Source: a virus
IMG/VR virus record: IMGVR_UViG_3300044644_001164
Coordinates: 1 to 27,301 of that record
Reading direction: 5' to 3' (one strand)
DNA length: 27,301 nucleotides
Within the stretch, counting starts at the first letter, position 1, and the number at the start of each line of letters is the position of its first letter. This document shows, one piece after another, positions 660-8,235 of the stretch. Position numbers and translations under genes: made by a program. The notes under the pieces are model-generated. The model saw nothing but the letters and a program-made list of their open reading frames with translations. It had not been told where the DNA came from and searched no databases.

Positions 660-890
660 TTTTTCAAAACGCTACCTTATATATAATGCATTAATTGCTC
701 CGTGGTCCGTGGTCCATGATCCACTCACCCACATACACTCAAAACCCTCCAAGACCCACGCACCAAGCCATTGGGCTCATTTCCCACTAAAAACGCACTC
801 TAAAAATTGCCTATTTTTTAAGCAAAGTTGCCTATTTTTTAAGCAAAAACACCCATTACGTTACATTACGTCTATTTTTCAAAACGCTAC
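660..890. repeat. 16-bp direct repeat pair
   Basis: TTTTTCAAAACGCTAC occurs at 660-675 and again at 875-890. The second copy abuts the T-tract of the terminator. Both lie in the non-coding region, at the two ends of a roughly 200-base stretch. Confidence 0.6.
807..847. repeat. Tandem 20-bp repeat
   Basis: TTGCCTATTTTTTAAGCAAA occurs at 807-826 and again at 828-847, separated by one base. Each copy ends in short inverted TTGC/GCAA arms around a T-rich core. Confidence 0.7.
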
Positions 891-893
891 TTA

Positions 894-930
894 TAAAAAA
901 AGAGACCCCCGAATGAATTCGAAGGTCTCT
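894..930 (-). terminator. Intrinsic terminator, leftward
   Basis: Bases 901-930 fold into a hairpin with outer stem AGAGACC/GGTCTCT and inner stem CGAAT/ATTCG. Read leftward, it is followed at once by a run of seven T. It lies about 47 bases past the stop of the 63-aa gene and would end the operon that begins near 2523. Confidence 0.8.
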
Positions 931-976
931 GTAAAATTTTTCCTGATTTTGGCCGTAATAAGTTACCTAAATACCC

Positions 977-1168
977 CTATTGCACCGTATTATTCAGTCC
1001 ATGAAGTAGGCAAGATACAATGTGTTTCATGATGACGATTTCACCGAATTCTAGGTCTTGAATTTCGCCTACTTCTTCATTTTCTTTGCAGATAACGGGT
1101 GCGAACATAGGATACGTTATCCCGTCCACGGTAATCCTTACTATCTGCATTAGTTTTTCGTCGTCCAT
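977..1168 (-). CDS. Small phage protein, function unknown
   Basis: A 63-residue acidic protein. The first half looks like a small beta-rich unit (MQIVRITVDGITYPMFAPVI) and the middle is Glu-rich. It is the last gene before the leftward terminator at 894-930 and starts 12 bases after the XF1762-like gene ends, so it belongs to the same operon. No family recognised. Confidence 0.5.
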   Translation of the reverse strand: MDDEKLMQIVRITVDGITYPMFAPVICKENEEVGEIQDLEFGEIVIMKHIVSCLLHGLNNTVQ

Positions 1169-1180
1169 TGACGTAGTTTA

Positions 1181-1672
1181 CTATGGTTTATCCGTGCTGT
1201 CTTCTACTACTCTACTCTTAATCTCCCAAAGAAGCCTTTTTACCCCTCCGTTGCCTACGGTATCCCGCATTTCTTTAAGCCTGTCATCTGCAGTAGAGTC
1301 TGCCCACGATCCTCTAGGTTCGAGTTCCTTGATGCATACCCATCCAGCTGCGCGAAGACTTGCGCCGCTCTCGTCGTGTTGGGTATAGGTAATGCATCTT
1401 TTGTATCCCATGGCCTTACCGGCACGCCAAATAGCACCATACAACATGCTATTTGCATTGGCGGTGCCATCGGTGCATGTTCGATTGACCTCCAGCGTGA
1501 GTCCATCATCAAAATGCCTTGCTACTGGACGGCCGGCCATGGCCACACCTACAAGAGTTCCTTCGTTCTCAAGGCCTATACTAAACTTATGCCCTCTTGG
1601 CGGCTTGTTGTGTCGATGCAAAAGCGCTACAAACTCACAGGCCTTTCTAAAGGTGATGGGAACGATGGTCAT
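1181..1672 (-). CDS. XF1762 family protein
   Basis: A 163-residue protein that I recognise as the XF1762 family of phage and prophage proteins. Family signs are an N-terminal HRHNKPPRGHKFSIG (about residues 19-33), GRPVARHFDDGLTLEVNRTC (47-66), NSMLYGAIWRAGKAMGYKR (73-91), and a GASLRAAGW ending. The layout resembles an acetyltransferase (GNAT) fold, but the substrate is unknown. The gene starts in an ATGA overlap with the stop of the DUF3310 gene. An 18-bp direct repeat lies at its 3' end and again at the 3' end of the preceding gene, so the gene is bracketed by repeats. Confidence 0.85.
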   Translation of the reverse strand: MTIVPITFRKACEFVALLHRHNKPPRGHKFSIGLENEGTLVGVAMAGRPVARHFDDGLTLEVNRTCTDGTANANSMLYGAIWRAGKAMGYKRCITYTQHDESGASLRAAGWVCIKELEPRGSWADSTADDRLKEMRDTVGNGGVKRLLWEIKSRVVEDSTDKP

Positions 1673-1691
1673 CTATCCGTGCTGTCTTCTA
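1189..1691. repeat. 18-bp direct repeat bracketing the XF1762-like gene
   Basis: TATCCGTGCTGTCTTCTA occurs at 1189-1206 and at 1674-1691. Each copy encodes the C-terminal EDSTD of a different protein, in the same frame. Recombination between them would remove or add the 1181-1672 gene almost exactly. Confidence 0.75.
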
Positions 1692-1965
1692 TGAATTCCA
1701 CAAGGGCATTGATATACCATTGCGCTTTCTTTAAGTCCTTCAGCGTGTCGTCTTTAAGTCCGGCGCGGGATAGATACTTGAGTGCGGTAAGGCGTAGATG
1801 CCCTCTGAATTCCTCAGGGGTGGACTTGGCCTCCATGTAGTCAATCGTTTCGATCCCTCCGCTGGTGTAGTGCGGAGGGCTGTTGATAAGGTCTTTTGTT
1901 GATGGAGAAGATTTCTTAAGCCACTCTTTCATTTCTTCCGCTGTCATTTCTATTATGTTACTCAT
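1669..1965 (-). CDS. DUF3310 domain protein (T7 gp1.7-like)
   Basis: A 98-residue protein whose second half is the DUF3310 domain: INSPPHYTSGGIETIDYMEA (residues 27-46), then HLRLTALKYLSRAGLKDD and DLKKAQWYINALVEFI. The domain is widespread in phages; in T7 it is part of gp1.7, reported to act as a nucleotide kinase. Whether this short version has that activity is unknown. Its ATG overlaps the upstream stop by 8 bases, with a GAGGAG just before, and its own stop overlaps the next start (ATGA). Confidence 0.85.
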   Translation of the reverse strand: MSNIIEMTAEEMKEWLKKSSPSTKDLINSPPHYTSGGIETIDYMEAKSTPEEFRGHLRLTALKYLSRAGLKDDTLKDLKKAQWYINALVEFIEDSTDR

Positions 1966-2149
1966 ATTGCTCCTCTTCCTTGTCTGCTTCTACGGCCGAC
2001 GCAAGGTCGACCAGTAATCTGTCCCAAATGGTTTGTTTAAAGTCGTCAGGGTATTCATTCCAGGCCTTAAAGTATTCGACGTCCGGACGAAAGCCGTAAG
2101 CGTCTTTATAAAGGTCGGATAATAGGTCGGTGTCGAAGGTATATTTCAT
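1958..2149 (-). CDS. Conserved small phage protein, unknown
   Basis: A 63-residue acidic protein with the N-terminal pattern FDTDLLSDLYKDAYGFRPD and a later WDRLLVDL. I have a clear memory of this pattern in many proteobacterial phage proteins, always without a function. It starts in an ATGA overlap with the preceding gene and overlaps the DUF3310 gene at its end, so it is firmly in this operon. Confidence 0.7.
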   Translation of the reverse strand: MKYTFDTDLLSDLYKDAYGFRPDVEYFKAWNEYPDDFKQTIWDRLLVDLASAVEADKEEEQYE

Positions 2150-2334
2150 TCATTGTTCTCCTTCAACAGGAAATGAGGCGTGGGCCGTGGTAAACGGACG
2201 ACGTTGTCTGGATGGAGACGGTATTTGCTACCCATTTGCTCCTTGAGCCGTGCAACTTTACTCTCGCGCAATGCGATAGCGGCTTGAAGTTCAGCATCGG
2301 GCAATTGCACACGTGCTAAGTCTATTAGATACAT
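2146..2334 (-). CDS. Small phage protein, unknown
   Basis: A 62-residue basic protein beginning MYLIDLARVQLPDAELQAAI, with a helical middle and a basic, proline-containing end. I chose the ATG at 2334 because AAGGA stands 7 bases before it. An upstream in-frame ATG at 2367 would add 11 residues and has a weaker GGGGTG site, so either start is possible. The stop overlaps the next gene by ATGA. No family recognised. Confidence 0.55.
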   Translation of the reverse strand: MYLIDLARVQLPDAELQAAIALRESKVARLKEQMGSKYRLHPDNVVRLPRPTPHFLLKENNE

Positions 2335-2406
2335 GATATTTTCCTTTTCTAACTTTCTATTAAACATAATTCACCCCAAAAACAGGTTTGAGTGACTAGA
2401 ATACCA

Positions 2407-2523
2407 TCATTTTTGGCTTTGTAAAGCTTTTTTAGCGAAAGTATACGATAAAAGTATCCCGAACGATGCGCCGAGCATAAAAGCTTCTTTGTAGCACAGG
2501 TAATAATCGAGGATTTCAGTCAT
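2407..2523 (-). CDS. Small membrane protein, 38 codons
   Basis: A short ORF with a strong AAGGTGA site just before the ATG. It encodes MTEILDYYLCYKEAFMLGAS followed by FGILLSYTFAKKALQSQK. The middle (about residues 14-30) is hydrophobic enough for one membrane pass, with a basic end. It is the first gene of the leftward operon that ends at the 894-930 terminator. No family recognised; the good ribosome site and position are the main support. Confidence 0.5.
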   Translation of the reverse strand: MTEILDYYLCYKEAFMLGASFGILLSYTFAKKALQSQK

Positions 2524-2553
2524 TTTTCACCTTGGTAGGATATTTACCATATT

Positions 2554-2582
2554 TTGCATATTAATACGATAAATGTTATAAA
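2554..2582 (+). promoter_or_regulatory. Candidate promoter for the HNH gene
   Basis: TTGCAT (2554-2559) and TATAAA (2577-2582) are separated by exactly 17 bases, 28 bases before the HNH start codon. The -10 is a good sigma-70 match and the -35 is partial. Confidence 0.45.
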
Positions 2583-2610
2583 GAGTCTTTCTGTAAGGGT
2601 ATATTCTACT

Positions 2611-2982
2611 ATGCCGCATAAAGATCCGGAAGTAAGAAGGCTAAAACAACGTCAGTATTCAAGCAAGCACTACCATTCCAACAGGGAAGAGCACATCGAG
2701 CGCATACGGGTGCAGAAGATTCGTATGCGGGCCGAGTGGGAAGAGTATAAGTCTACCTTGGAGTGCGTGCAGTGTGGGCAGAATCATCCGGCCACGTTGG
2801 ACTTCCACCATGTTATCAAAGACCCCGCCAATAGAAAGATAAGTGAATTGACCCAAAACGGGGCATACAAGCTTGCCCGTGCGGAGATCGAGGCGAAGTG
2901 CGTGGTGTTGTGTGCCAGTTGTCACCGGATATGGCACCATGAAGAGCGCCAGATGAAGGAAGGGAGTTTTTTAGAGCGCTAA
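2611..2982 (+). CDS. HNH endonuclease
   Basis: A 123-residue protein and the only rightward gene in the left arm. It carries an HNH fold with zinc-binding pairs: C52-x2-C55, then LDFHH (His66, His67), Asn74 in DPANRK, and C101-x2-C104-H105 with more His at 109-110. The basic N-terminal helix could contact DNA. The ATG at 2611 is preceded by TAAGGG about 11 bases away; an upstream TTG in frame (2554) lies inside the candidate promoter, so I reject it. Free-standing HNH genes in phages are often homing nucleases or packaging-linked nickases. Its own promoter and opposite strand suggest independent acquisition. Confidence 0.85.
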   Translation: MPHKDPEVRRLKQRQYSSKHYHSNREEHIERIRVQKIRMRAEWEEYKSTLECVQCGQNHPATLDFHHVIKDPANRKISELTQNGAYKLARAEIEAKCVVLCASCHRIWHHEERQMKEGSFLER

Positions 2983-2983
2983 G

Positions 2984-3005
2984 TGTAAAGCATACTTTAC
3001 ATTTT
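2984..3005 (+). terminator. Weak candidate terminator after HNH
   Basis: TGTAAAG-CATA-CTTTACA makes a 7-bp stem (2984-3001) right after the HNH stop, followed by TTTT. The stem is AT-rich, so termination would be inefficient. Confidence 0.35.
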
Positions 3006-3095
3006 GGCAGTCATGTTGCCGATAAGTAACAGGTTTTAGTTCAAAACTAAACTAAAAGTGTAGACCTACGCAAATAATTAAACTCAAAAACTGTA

Positions 3096-3194
3096 TATAC
3101 ACACGGGGTGTATACAAAACGCCAAAAAATATACACGTTATCAAAACGTGTATACAAAACGCCAAAAAATATACACGTTATCAAAACGTGTATA
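3096..3194. repeat. Tandem 40-bp repeats with three dyads
   Basis: A 40-bp unit occurs at 3108-3147 and 3148-3187 without visible change, with the start of a third at 3188. Within it TATACACGTT-N5-AACGTGTATA forms perfect 10-bp inverted repeats at 3130-3154 and 3170-3194. A related 7-bp dyad TATACAC-N5-GTGTATA lies at 3096-3114. The dyad centres are 37 and 40 bp apart. These look like iterons or operator sites. Confidence 0.8.
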
Positions 3195-3195
3195 A

Positions 3196-3218
3196 AATGT
3201 CTAAACAAATGTCTAAAC
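3196..3218. repeat. Short direct repeat AATGTCTAAAC
   Basis: AATGTCTAAAC occurs at 3196-3206 and 3208-3218, directly after the 40-bp repeats. Confidence 0.55.
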
Positions 3219-3230
3219 TAATAGTTCTGA

Positions 3231-3337
3231 GTAACATATATGTTACCTTAACCTATTTAAAGCGACTTTTATGAACCACTTTGCAAGATAGTCGCGACTG
3301 TTTTAAAGTCGGCTACGATCGTAGTATTTGTAGCTAC
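3231..3337. repeat. Cluster of perfect palindromes
   Basis: Perfect palindromes GTAACATATATGTTAC (3231-3246), AGTCGCGACT (3290-3299), CTACGATCGTAG (3313-3324) and GTAGCTAC (3330-3337) lie within about 110 bases. Their sequences differ, so they are probably not one operator family. Confidence 0.6.
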
Positions 3338-3367
3338 AAAAAACCCCGCGTAGTCTCCTGGGCGGGG
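3338..3367 (-). terminator. Intrinsic terminator after pqqA
   Basis: Read leftward, CCCCGC (3367-3362) pairs with GCGGGG (3349-3344) across a 12-base loop and is followed by six T (3343-3338). It lies 22 bases past the pqqA stop and would end the leftward transcript that carries pqqA. Confidence 0.85.
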
Positions 3368-3389
3368 TATGTATATACATTGTATATAC

Positions 3390-3461
3390 TTATTTGTTCA
3401 TTACGTACATTGTCACTTCGAAGCCAAAGCGCATTTCAGTTGCAGCTGGAGTTGTCCACAT
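3390..3461 (-). CDS. pqqA: PQQ precursor peptide PqqA
   Basis: A 23-codon gene whose product begins MWTTPAATEMRFGFEVTMY and ends VMNK. It matches PqqA, the ribosomal precursor of pyrroloquinoline quinone: length 22-29 residues, N-terminal W-T-x-P, the R-F-G-F-E-V-T-M-Y core, and the obligatory Glu (E15) and Tyr (Y19) three residues apart. In the known pathway PqqD presents the peptide to the radical SAM enzyme PqqE, which joins the two side chains; proteases, PqqB and PqqC finish the cofactor. The Shine-Dalgarno AAGGA lies 8 bases upstream, and a terminator follows 22 bases after the stop. No pqqB-E is visible, so host enzymes must process it. I think it is an auxiliary metabolic gene raising PQQ supply; the function is inferred from sequence. 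Confidence 0.9.
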   Translation of the reverse strand: MWTTPAATEMRFGFEVTMYVMNK

Positions 3462-3471
3462 GATGTTAGTC

Positions 3472-3487
3472 CTTAATATATATTAAG
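3472..3487. promoter_or_regulatory. 16-bp palindrome over the pqqA ribosome site
   Basis: CTTAATATATATTAAG is a perfect palindrome ending at the AAGGA site of pqqA. It could be an operator or a structure limiting ribosome access. Being purely A/T inside, it may also be chance. Confidence 0.45.
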
Positions 3488-3495
3488 CAAAAGTG

Positions 3496-3531
3496 CTTGT
3501 ATGTAATAATCCGCCTAATATTACACACAAG
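3496..3531 (-). promoter_or_regulatory. Leader stem-loop upstream of pqqA
   Basis: On the minus strand CTTGTGTGTAATA (3531-3519) pairs with TATTACATACAAG (3508-3496), 13 bp with one G-U pair, around a 10-base loop. It sits 35 bases before the pqqA start. A short T tract follows (CACTTTTGC), and a small competing hairpin AAGCA-CTTT-TGCTT is possible. It may be an attenuator, a processing site or an RNA-stability element. Confidence 0.5.
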
Positions 3532-3568
3532 CCATACGGATAATCATTAATCGCAAAAAAGTGATATA

Positions 3569-3652
3569 TTACTTAGCCAGCTTCTCGGCGTTCTCTTTCA
3601 TCTTACTAAGTATCAATAAGAAGCGTAGCTCTTCAAGTTCGGCGGCGGTCAT
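3569..3652 (-). CDS. 27-codon peptide, unknown
   Basis: Starts in an ATGA overlap with the stop of the Cys-rich membrane-protein gene. It encodes a charged helical peptide (MTAAELEELRFLLILSKMKE then NAEKLAK) with no transmembrane segment. The tight overlap argues for real translation by coupling, but the length gives little else to go on. It is the last gene before the pqqA leader. Confidence 0.4.
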   Translation of the reverse strand: MTAAELEELRFLLILSKMKENAEKLAK

Positions 3653-3870
3653 ACGGTCTTCCCGATATAGGTCGCAGAACTGTCCTTGAATTGAACCTCG
3701 ATTTGGCAGTCCTGGCCTTTGTTTCCACTGAAAAGCTTATACAAGCCCAGACCCATGGAAAGAAGGCATATGGTCAACAAGGTCGCGATCACGACCGTCG
3801 CGCGGTCCACGCTCCTGTCTGGCTGACACGTGCACCGACGTCCTTGGTTGCAGTCCTGATTACATGCCAT
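3649..3870 (-). CDS. Cys-rich single-pass membrane protein
   Basis: A 73-residue protein with an N-terminal cysteine cluster (C3, C7, C13, C15 in MACNQDCNQGRRCTC), a membrane segment at about residues 25-46 (VVIATLLTICLLSMGLGLY), and a polar C-terminal part. The N-terminal pattern is familiar from proteins in betaproteobacterial phages and prophages, where it has no known role. AAGGAG lies well placed before the ATG. It is downstream of the Cys-rich exported protein, so two Cys-rich envelope proteins are adjacent. Confidence 0.65.
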   Translation of the reverse strand: MACNQDCNQGRRCTCQPDRSVDRATVVIATLLTICLLSMGLGLYKLFSGNKGQDCQIEVQFKDSSATYIGKTV

Positions 3871-3884
3871 CGTTATTCTCCTTT

Positions 3885-4037
3885 TTAGAAGCAGTTAGTA
3901 TTGCAATTGCCGAGGCTATCACAGCAAGTAGTACACATTACCATTCTACCGCCAGACATAAAGGTGTGAGTGGTGCATGCCGCGTATGCTGTTAATGAAA
4001 CTACTAGTAATACTAATCCTACAAATACCTTTTTCAT
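3885..4037 (-). CDS. Cys-rich exported small protein
   Basis: A 50-residue protein from the ATG at 4037, chosen because GAGGAG stands 8 bases before it. The upstream in-frame start at 4067 would put a basic extension ahead of the signal peptide. A Sec signal peptide is clear: MKKVFVGLVLLVVSLTAYA, with cleavage expected after AYA. The mature part has about 31 residues with six cysteines, including a CTTCC group. It is likely periplasmic with disulfides. Small exported proteins of this form occur in phages without known function. Confidence 0.65.
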   Translation of the reverse strand: MKKVFVGLVLLVVSLTAYAACTTHTFMSGGRMVMCTTCCDSLGNCNTNCF

Positions 4038-6369: not shown

Positions 6370-8235
6370 TTATCGTGCTCCGCCCCAAGAAGTACCGATT
6401 TCTACGTCTACTTTGCTCGGCACTTCCAAATCAACGGCTGTACGCATGATTTCTGCAGCTGCTTCAGCCTCTTCACGGTTCTTAACTGACACGGCAACCT
6501 CATCGTGCACCTGTAAAAGGATACGGAAACCTGCTTTATGCAGTGCAATCATGGCCGCCTTGGTCTGGTCGGCCGCAGAACCTTGGATTAAACGGTTCAA
6601 ACCCTTGTATGTACCCGCACGCTTGATCCGTGGTCCGTATTCCGAGACGGCTTGTTCATAAGGAAGCGCCTTGTTCACTCCCCATGCGATTGGCTCCCAT
6701 AATGGGAACCTACATTTACGCCCTAGAAGGGTGCGAATAGCGCCATTTGACGACGGCTTTTCAATACGGCGCATGACCGCGTCGACTGTACCACGTAAGA
6801 ATGGTACTTTATTGTGGAAGGTGCTCATCAATTCACTGGCTTCGTCCACAGGAAGGTCCAATTGTCCGGCTAATTTGTTCTTGCCCATGCCATACATCAA
6901 GCCTAAACCGATTGTCTTGGCTTGTTTACGCTCAATGCCTGCCATGTCTGCCACCATTTGATGGAAATCCGTGTCAGGATTGTCCCGATAGGCTTGTGCC
7001 ATCTTCTCTGCACCGTCTAATCCGATAAGCGTAGCGTAATGCACTAGCAAACGCGGCTCTTGTGACGAGAAGTCGTTCGCGGCCCATAGCTCGCCTTCCT
7101 CTGGAAGGAACAAGGAGCGCACTAGCGGGCCTATGACCTCGTGTCTTGCGGGGACCTGCTGCAGGTTAGGCTGTGACATAGATAGCCTGCCAGTCACCGT
7201 GCCGCCATCGTCAGAGCGAAGTTGGTTGACGTGTGGATGTATGCGTCCATCTGCGGCGGAGAAGTCCAGGTAAGGCTGTAAGAACGTGCCGTGGGTCTTG
7301 TTTAGCTCGCGTGCTTCTACAATCATCTTAGCGACAGGGTGTGCGTTTCCATCTAGGAAAGACTTAGTGAAGCTTGGTGCGCCGGCCTCGGTCCTTGGGT
7401 ACTTAATCTTAAGCTTGTCGAATGCAGTAGCGATACTGGCCGCGGCCCATATATCGACGTGATTGCCTACTTCTTTCTTAATATCCATCAAATATTGCTG
7501 TTCTTTGCGCTTCATGTCCTTAATAAGCTTCTCTGCGTTCTCACGATCAAAGCGGACACCTTTGAATGTCAGGTCAATAAGGATGGGAAGCATCTCTGTC
7601 TCCATACCAAACACGGACTCAACCTCTTCCCTACGTAGTAATGTCTGTAGATGGTGCCAAAGCTTTAGGGTAAGCGCCGCGTCTTGCTCCGCGTAGTCGC
7701 CCACGTACATGGCAGGCAGCTTCCATAGTTCTTTCTTAGGGTGCACGCCGAAGTCTGCAGCCGCATCTTTAAGTCCTTGCTCGGACTTGGTCTCTTTGAG
7801 CATGTCAAAGCCCAGGCTATTCAAGGCAAATGAGAAACGGTTCTCGTCCACAATTGCCGCGGCGAGCATGGTATCAATGATGCGTCCGTTGACCTCGAAG
7901 CCTGTTGCCTTGAGCCAGCCCGTGTCGTATGCCGCGTTGTGCATAATCTTGTCGCAAGGTAAGGCTAAGGTCTTCTTGACCCAGCGCTCCACAATGCCTT
8001 TGTCTAGGTTGCCACCGCCTTGATGTGCTACTGGGAAGTAGCCCTTCCATCCGTCTACTGCAAACGCGTAGCCGACGATGTAGCCGTCTTTACGAGGCCA
8101 GCCTGGGCCGAACTTCTCCATGTTGGGGTCGCATGTCTCCAAGTCGATTGCGATTTCCGTTGCCTGCGATAGGTCGGGAAAGCTCTGAGGAGGTAGCCAC
8201 TCAGAGGACGTTGGGAATAGTGATCTAGGTTTCAT
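6370..8235 (-). CDS. Family A DNA polymerase with 3'-5' exonuclease
   Basis: A 621-residue replicative polymerase. The N-terminal proofreading domain has D31-L-E33, NAAYD104 and Y181-x3-D185, the DEDDy set. The polymerase domain has motif A NDFSSQEPR (Asp388), motif B RKQAKTIGLGLMYG (436-449) and motif C VHDEV (Asp578). The 5'-3' nuclease domain of bacterial Pol I is absent, as usual in phages. The residue matching E. coli Phe762 is Leu (L444), a variant common in environmental phage polymerases and linked in the literature to slower, more accurate synthesis. Its start overlaps the helicase stop (ATGA). Confidence 0.95.
   Translation of the reverse strand: MKPRSLFPTSSEWLPPQSFPDLSQATEIAIDLETCDPNMEKFGPGWPRKDGYIVGYAFAVDGWKGYFPVAHQGGGNLDKGIVERWVKKTLALPCDKIMHNAAYDTGWLKATGFEVNGRIIDTMLAAAIVDENRFSFALNSLGFDMLKETKSEQGLKDAAADFGVHPKKELWKLPAMYVGDYAEQDAALTLKLWHHLQTLLRREEVESVFGMETEMLPILIDLTFKGVRFDRENAEKLIKDMKRKEQQYLMDIKKEVGNHVDIWAAASIATAFDKLKIKYPRTEAGAPSFTKSFLDGNAHPVAKMIVEARELNKTHGTFLQPYLDFSAADGRIHPHVNQLRSDDGGTVTGRLSMSQPNLQQVPARHEVIGPLVRSLFLPEEGELWAANDFSSQEPRLLVHYATLIGLDGAEKMAQAYRDNPDTDFHQMVADMAGIERKQAKTIGLGLMYGMGKNKLAGQLDLPVDEASELMSTFHNKVPFLRGTVDAVMRRIEKPSSNGAIRTLLGRKCRFPLWEPIAWGVNKALPYEQAVSEYGPRIKRAGTYKGLNRLIQGSAADQTKAAMIALHKAGFRILLQVHDEVAVSVKNREEAEAAAEIMRTAVDLEVPSKVDVEIGTSWGGAR

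What the first reader, a model, noticed from the sequence alone, without database searches (positions are those of the whole stretch)
3390..3461. Phage-borne pqqA: a 23-codon cofactor precursor gene
The minus strand encodes a complete PqqA-like peptide (MWTTPAATEMRFGFEVTMY plus four residues) with the obligatory Glu15 and Tyr19. PQQ is the cofactor of methanol and other dehydrogenases. Here a phage carries only the substrate peptide, the smallest possible auxiliary metabolic gene, and relies on host PqqB-E. In methylotrophs pqqA is often present in extra copies, so the peptide may be limiting; the phage could be keeping carbon and electron flow high during infection, or diverting the peptide. 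A short gene like this is missed by most gene callers, so it may be common and overlooked in phages of methylotrophs. I do not know whether phage pqqA has been described before.
Basis: partly seen in the sequence, partly recalled or inferred. Interest (0 to 1): 0.93.

Follow-up and report, generated by a model that had tools for sequence, protein, structure and literature searches.

The report
Overlooked PQQ precursor gene in methylophages
Viruses that infect methanol-eating bacteria carry a tiny gene for the peptide that the host uses up, one per molecule, to make the cofactor PQQ of its methanol-oxidising enzymes; the gene is present in every such cultured virus found here, in several unrelated families, but gene annotation has almost always missed it.

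Summary
Window 3390-3461 (-) is an intact 23-codon pqqA that passes the Pfam and NCBIfam PqqA cut-offs, with a Shine-Dalgarno site, its own terminator and phage genes on both sides. Its peptide is identical to the commonest PqqA of Methylophilaceae. It is not a one-off. Ten phage records in a 50,697-record collection carry an intact pqqA (isolates P19250A, Venkman, MEP301, MEP401/402, four Melnitz; one uncultured genome); none has it annotated. Over 200 IMG/VR contigs do too (about 1,600 estimated). Between unrelated methylophages pqqA can be the only shared DNA. No Pseudomonas, Klebsiella or Acinetobacter phage was found to carry it. Phage copies are under purifying selection; 204 screened viral loci contain no PqqB-E. 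Hosts multiply pqqA (median 4 copies, up to 12) but keep pqqE single. Best explanation: the phage supplies the one PQQ component consumed stoichiometrically, and host enzymes do the rest, so PQQ-dependent methanol oxidation continues during infection. That step is inferred, not shown. Precedent: one Lake Baikal phage population with pqqA (PMC7678222), whose authors stated that P19250A lacks such genes; it has one. New here: the breadth, the repeated occurrence and the systematic annotation gap.

The parts
3390..3461 (-). pqqA: 23-residue PqqA precursor peptide MWTTPAATEMRFGFEVTMYVMNK, with the cross-link pair Glu15 and Tyr19
3470..3474 (-). Shine-Dalgarno AAGGA, 8 nt before the ATG
   Evidence: an SD-like core is present in 127 of 127 phage copies examined
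3338..3368 (-). intrinsic terminator ACCCCGC-loop-GCGGGGT followed by TTTTT, downstream of pqqA
   Evidence: terminator-like sites after 37 of 122 phage copies, about 0.3 expected from shuffles
2554..2982 (+). HNH endonuclease, the phage gene on the 3' side of pqqA
   Evidence: phrog_3106 E 7e-21; homologue in phage DSL-LC04
3649..3870 (-). small ORF of unknown function on the 5' side of pqqA
   Evidence: no family
6370..8235 (-). phage DNA polymerase A that places the virus in the DSL-LC04 / HTVC023P-like lineage
   Evidence: 78% identity to DSL-LC04, 52% to pelagiphage HTVC023P

Best explanation
This is a functional phage copy of pqqA, an auxiliary metabolic gene that supplies a consumable. 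The host enzymes PqqB-E are catalytic and should persist after the phage takes over transcription, whereas the peptide would run out. By making its own PqqA, the phage would let host PqqB-E keep charging methanol dehydrogenase, so that methanol oxidation (carbon and electrons) continues during infection. Shown here: intact gene, viral location, host-identical peptide, purifying selection, restriction to methylotroph phages, absence of other pqq genes, and host amplification of pqqA only. Inferred: translation during infection, processing by host PqqD/PqqE, and PQQ being limiting.
For: Family membership. Peptide identical to the commonest Methylophilaceae PqqA, 55 of about 129 host copies. Ten phage records, nine of them Methylophilales isolates, carry it, spanning short-tailed, siphovirus and T4-like genomes. 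pqqA is the only shared DNA between MEP301 and P19250A or MEP401 in the stretches compared. Purifying selection on codons not fixed by the search pattern: pN/pS 0.36, and 0.20 in codons 12, 18 and 20-23. Stand-alone placement: on the opposite strand to both neighbours in 86 of 188 loci. No PqqE over cut-off in 50 whole records or in the window and no PqqB-E in 204 viral loci, with positive controls found. Hosts: pqqA in 150 of 150 Methylophilaceae genomes, mean 4.3, median 4, maximum 12; pqqE single in 136 of 144; the pattern was noted earlier (PMC4109929). Queries with Pseudomonas and Klebsiella type PqqA find only methylophages plus misfiled Acinetobacter host contigs. Mechanism of PqqA use from PMC10906245.
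Against: No expression, peptide or PQQ data. OM43 cultures are given PQQ in some media (PMC9004378), so PQQ need not be limiting in the laboratory. Not every relative carries it: 6 of 32 Venkman-lineage contigs that cover the site lack it there, most MEP401-lineage fragments show none, and none of 50 polymerase relatives of the window phage does, although their hosts are unknown and many records are fragments. Short infections might not exhaust existing holoenzyme.
Confidence: 0.77

Rival explanations
1. The phage peptide is a decoy or competitor: made in excess it occupies PqqD/PqqE, or is diverted to another product, and changes host redox metabolism instead of raising PQQ.
For: PqqD binds PqqA with sub-micromolar affinity (PMC10906245), so excess peptide could titrate it; only the substrate is encoded.
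Against: The window peptide is letter-for-letter the host peptide, and Glu15 and Tyr19 are present in all 114 distinct phage cores (both positions were required by the search pattern, so this is not independent). A dead-end decoy should lose the reactive pair; the Methylophilales isolates, found without the pattern, all keep it.
Confidence: 0.08
2. The gene is a passenger or recombination relic without present benefit.
For: It sits in accessory, variable regions and is absent from lineage relatives.
Against: Purifying selection at positions the search did not fix, an SD in every copy, terminators far above chance, and independent occurrence in several phage families.
Confidence: 0.05
3. The pqqA copy is an attachment site: the phage integrates into one of the many host pqqA genes and its own copy restores the gene, as some phages do with tRNA genes.
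For: Hosts offer many dispersed pqqA targets.
Against: Phage and host genes differ at synonymous sites (only 5 identical 54-nt cores among 114 phage and 109 host cores; window best host identity 92%); only 1 of 119 host pqqA loci has phage-like neighbours throughout, and it looks like a phage contig binned into a MAG. A thorough integrase search was not made.
Confidence: 0.04
4. Host DNA contamination or misassembly.
For: One IMG/VR hit, L058, is a host segment (SoxYZ, adenylate cyclase, methanol dehydrogenase nearby).
Against: Isolate genomes carry the gene; only 1 of 204 viral loci has host-pqqA-like neighbours; 18 of 20 sampled loci have a PHROG family in their largest ORF; the window is phage on both sides.
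Confidence: 0.02

Closest known systems
pqqA / PqqA precursor peptide of Methylophilaceae (PF08042, TIGR02107)
   Same: Same peptide, same start-to-stop length, same Glu/Tyr pair, same SD-ATG layout; the window peptide is identical to the commonest host one.
   Different: Carried by a virus, not next to pqqB-E, usually a lone gene in a phage intergenic gap.
Lake Baikal T4-like methylophage population VP_266 with pqqA and methanol dehydrogenase (PMC7678222)
   Same: Phage-borne pqqA with host PQQ metabolism as the proposed target.
   Different: There pqqA was reported with methanol dehydrogenase in one large T4-like population. Here the gene occurs without any other PQQ gene, in genomes from 35 kb to T4-like size and in unrelated families. 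That paper states that P19250A carries none of these genes, whereas it carries a pqqA with a peptide identical to the window's.
Photosystem gene psbA in cyanophages (from general knowledge)
   Different: psbA encodes a damaged-and-replaced protein subunit; pqqA encodes a precursor peptide consumed stoichiometrically to make a cofactor.

Membership tests
PqqA (PF08042 / TIGR02107) | Score above curated cut-off over the full model | tested here: met
   40.3 vs 21.1 bits, positions 1-19 of 19; 38.8 vs 20 bits, 1-21 of 21
PqqA (PF08042 / TIGR02107) | Glu and Tyr separated by three residues (E-x-x-x-Y), the PqqE cross-link pair | tested here: met
   Glu15 and Tyr19 in the translation; pair identified as Glu16/Tyr20 in M. 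extorquens (PMC10906245)
PqqA (PF08042 / TIGR02107) | Is cross-linked by PqqE with PqqD and yields PQQ | not testable with these tools
   needs in vitro reaction or complementation; sequence identity with host PqqA makes it likely
Phage auxiliary metabolic gene | Gene of host metabolism located in a genuine viral genome | tested here: met
Phage auxiliary metabolic gene | Maintained by selection in phages | tested here: met
   pN/pS 0.36 overall at codons not fixed by the pattern, 0.20 at codons 12, 18, 20-23
Phage auxiliary metabolic gene | Expressed in infection and changes host metabolism to the phage's benefit | not testable with these tools
   no transcriptome, proteome or infection data available

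The most novel reading that the evidence does not exclude
pqqA is a signature gene of methylophages as a whole, gained repeatedly by unrelated phage families because PQQ precursor supply is a bottleneck of infection in obligate methylotrophs: a class of auxiliary gene that supplies the consumable substrate of a host cofactor pathway rather than an enzyme.
Probability: 0.6. Interest if true: 0.85.

Novelty: new variant of a known kind. Interest (0 to 1): 0.77.

Why it matters
A 70-base gene that annotation pipelines drop appears to be the most general shared gene of viruses that kill methanol oxidisers of seas and lakes. It gives a host marker readable directly from DNA, corrects a published statement about P19250A, and suggests what limits an infected methylotroph: the peptide consumed to make PQQ. 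Isolated phage-host pairs already exist (Venkman, MEP301, MEP401, Melnitz, P19250A), so the idea can be tested now. It would also account for why hosts multiply pqqA alone: both host and phage raise the dose of the consumable.

Tried and rejected
First IMG/VR pattern had one N too few, my error, and found nothing. A single-linkage neighbour clustering was spoiled by ORFs overlapping pqqA and was redone. A promoter-consensus search upstream of pqqA gave only a weak excess over shuffles (42 vs 32 of 122), so no promoter is claimed. The methanol dehydrogenase found with pqqA in record G220 (L058) first looked like a second VP_266-type phage; SoxYZ and other host genes beside pqqA show it to be host DNA, so it was dropped. 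'Acinetobacter phage MD-2021a' hits are host contigs with pqqABCDE. Accession guesses for Venkman EXVC038S were not in the collection. Phages MEP431-434 and HIM624-A exist in the taxonomy but their genomes could not be examined.

Full report
The observation. Window 3390-3461 on the minus strand encodes MWTTPAATEMRFGFEVTMYVMNK and a stop. It matches Pfam PF08042 across the whole model, 40.3 bits against a cut-off of 21.1, and NCBIfam TIGR02107, 38.8 bits against 20. It is the only such match in the record, E 8.4e-11. A Shine-Dalgarno AAGGA lies 8 nt before the ATG and an intrinsic terminator follows the stop codon, so the gene reads as a small unit with its own end. No promoter is claimed.

The surroundings are viral. 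The window holds an HNH endonuclease, a Mom-like protein, DUF3310, DNA polymerase A, a UvrD-like helicase, a SNF2-type helicase, a virion structural protein, a tape-measure-like protein and an endolysin. The polymerase is 78% identical to that of phage DSL-LC04 (61.5 kb, Dishui Lake) and 52% to pelagiphage HTVC023P. The replication module is collinear with DSL-LC04 and IMG/VR relatives; the stretch that holds pqqA lies in the variable zone beyond the polymerase. None of 50 whole records of the lineage (49 of the 80 polymerase relatives, and DSL-LC04) has a PqqA match, while the same search rings on known carriers. So pqqA is accessory in this lineage and was probably gained by this phage or its near kin. 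The closest relative, L249 (95% polymerase identity), ends before the site, so it is uninformative.

Host link. The window peptide is identical to the commonest PqqA of Methylophilaceae genomes (55 copies among about 129 in 119 loci). At DNA level the gene differs: the best host match is 92% over 72 nt and the best phage match 94%.

How general it is. tblastn of the peptide against 50,697 phage records finds P19250A (100% identity), an uncultured Manatee Spring podovirus (96%), MEP301 and Venkman (91%), MEP401 and MEP402 (83%) and four Melnitz genomes (73%). None is annotated as PqqA: in five records the gene lies in an unannotated gap, and in the other five the feature under the match is a 'hypothetical protein', which in the two I read is an ORF called on the opposite strand. 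I cannot prove that the collection holds no methylophage without it; MEP431-434, HIM624-A and Venkman EXVC038S are named in the taxonomy but could not be examined. A narrower pattern, matched by 7 of 119 of that sample, returned 96 loci in a complete scan, which extrapolates to about 1,600 contigs (roughly 800-4,000 from the sampling error of 7 in 119, assuming the first 120 are a fair sample). The 84 further loci from it are all intact. Carriers lie on records of a few kb up to 356 kb.

Unrelated phages share only this gene. With 7.4 kb of MEP301 as query, the only match to P19250A, MEP401 and the Manatee Spring phage is 74-88 nt at pqqA. Among 127 loci there are 103 different immediate gene neighbourhoods, and the window shares with other carriers almost nothing but the common phage gene DUF3310. 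In the Venkman lineage the place is conserved: 26 of 32 contigs covering the site have pqqA, including every one with primase identity of 92% or more. In 86 of 188 loci pqqA lies on the strand opposite to both neighbours, the layout of an independently expressed cargo gene.

Selection. Among phage copies, at codons that the search pattern left free, pN/pS is 0.36 (0.22 in hosts), and 0.20 at codons 12, 18 and 20-23, with synonymous sites near saturation. Codon 12 is Phe in 110 of 119 and codon 18 Met in 109 of 119 although neither was required. All 127 copies have an SD-like core. Terminator-like sites follow 37 of 122 copies against 0.3 expected.

Only the substrate is carried. No PqqE over the cut-off occurs in 50 whole viral records or in the window, and no PqqB, C, D or E in 204 viral loci, with positive controls found. 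One record seemed to combine pqqA with methanol dehydrogenase, but its pqqA sits beside host SoxYZ and other host genes and I take it for host DNA. Only that 1 of 204 loci resembles host pqqA neighbourhoods, and in 18 of 20 randomly sampled loci the largest ORF belongs to a phage protein family.

Why the substrate alone. In 150 Methylophilaceae genomes pqqA is always present, mean 4.3, median 4, up to 12 copies, two or more in 144, while pqqE is single in 136 of the 144 genomes where it was found. This host pattern was already noted (PMC4109929). PqqA is the substrate that PqqE, with PqqD, cross-links between Glu and Tyr before proteolysis and ring formation by PqqB and PqqC (PMC10906245). One peptide is spent per PQQ, whereas the enzymes turn over. 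Host gene amplification and phage carriage therefore point to the same bottleneck. In a sample of the wider host order, 31 of 120 genomes have pqqA, with 1-6 copies (the 6 is a Methylophilaceae genome).

Specificity control. PqqA peptides of Pseudomonas and Klebsiella type, used as queries against the same phages, find only the methylophages and two host contigs misfiled as an Acinetobacter phage. In this collection phages of facultative PQQ users do not carry it; phages of hosts whose carbon and energy metabolism rests on PQQ do.

Literature. In the held library the one clear precedent is Lake Baikal population VP_266 with pqqA and methanol dehydrogenase (PMC7678222), whose authors state that P19250A encodes none of these genes; one search shows an identical PqqA there. 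A 2026 reservoir study lists pqqA among viral genes (PMC13188868). The papers on MEP301, MEP401/402, Venkman and Melnitz do not mention it in their main text. Subscription papers and supplements were not available. PHROGs has no family that matches the peptide, which helps explain the gap.

What is shown and what is not. Shown: a real, intact, selected, virus-borne pqqA, widespread in methylophages of unrelated families and usually unannotated. Inferred: that it is made during infection, processed by host PqqD and PqqE, and that PQQ supply limits the phage.

Noticed in passing
window 3099-3198: Two near-identical palindromic repeats (TATACACGTTATCAAAACGTGTATA followed by CAAAACGCC) plus a related GTGTATAC element downstream of pqqA; possible operator sites or terminators.
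   Followed up: no
window 1181-1672 (-): Mom-like DNA modification protein (phrog_1384, E 2e-41), suggesting modified phage DNA.
   Followed up: no
CAKLQF020000010.1 (L009) and CAKLQH020000055.1: Records filed as 'Acinetobacter phage MD-2021a'; the first is a bacterial contig with pqqABCDE and polyphosphate kinase.
   Followed up: yes
MZ577095.1 (L008:3961-4056) and MW202481.1 (L003:2067-2195): Annotated hypothetical proteins on the opposite strand over an intact pqqA; probably spurious calls.
   Followed up: yes
L058 (IMGVR_UViG_3300025120_009955, 72 kb): IMG/VR record that contains host DNA: SoxYZ, CHASE2 adenylate cyclase, methanol dehydrogenase and pqqA.
   Followed up: partly
L025, L041, L078, L099: Viral PqqA variants of the type EIRLGMEITAY, unlike Methylophilaceae, hinting at phages of other PQQ-dependent hosts.
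   Followed up: no
L040 (IMGVR_UViG_3300023174_000036, 356 kb): A 356-kb viral record carries pqqA, possibly a jumbo methylophage.
   Followed up: no
L232 (uncultured bacterium Loclat_bin-07551 contig): A contig binned with a bacterial MAG has pqqA amid genes shared with 44 phage loci; looks like a methylophage contig in a bin.
   Followed up: partly
L117:942-1772 and L128:3906-5018: pqqA-bearing phage contigs with PAPS-reductase-like and ferrochelatase/2OG-oxygenase-like genes.
   Followed up: no
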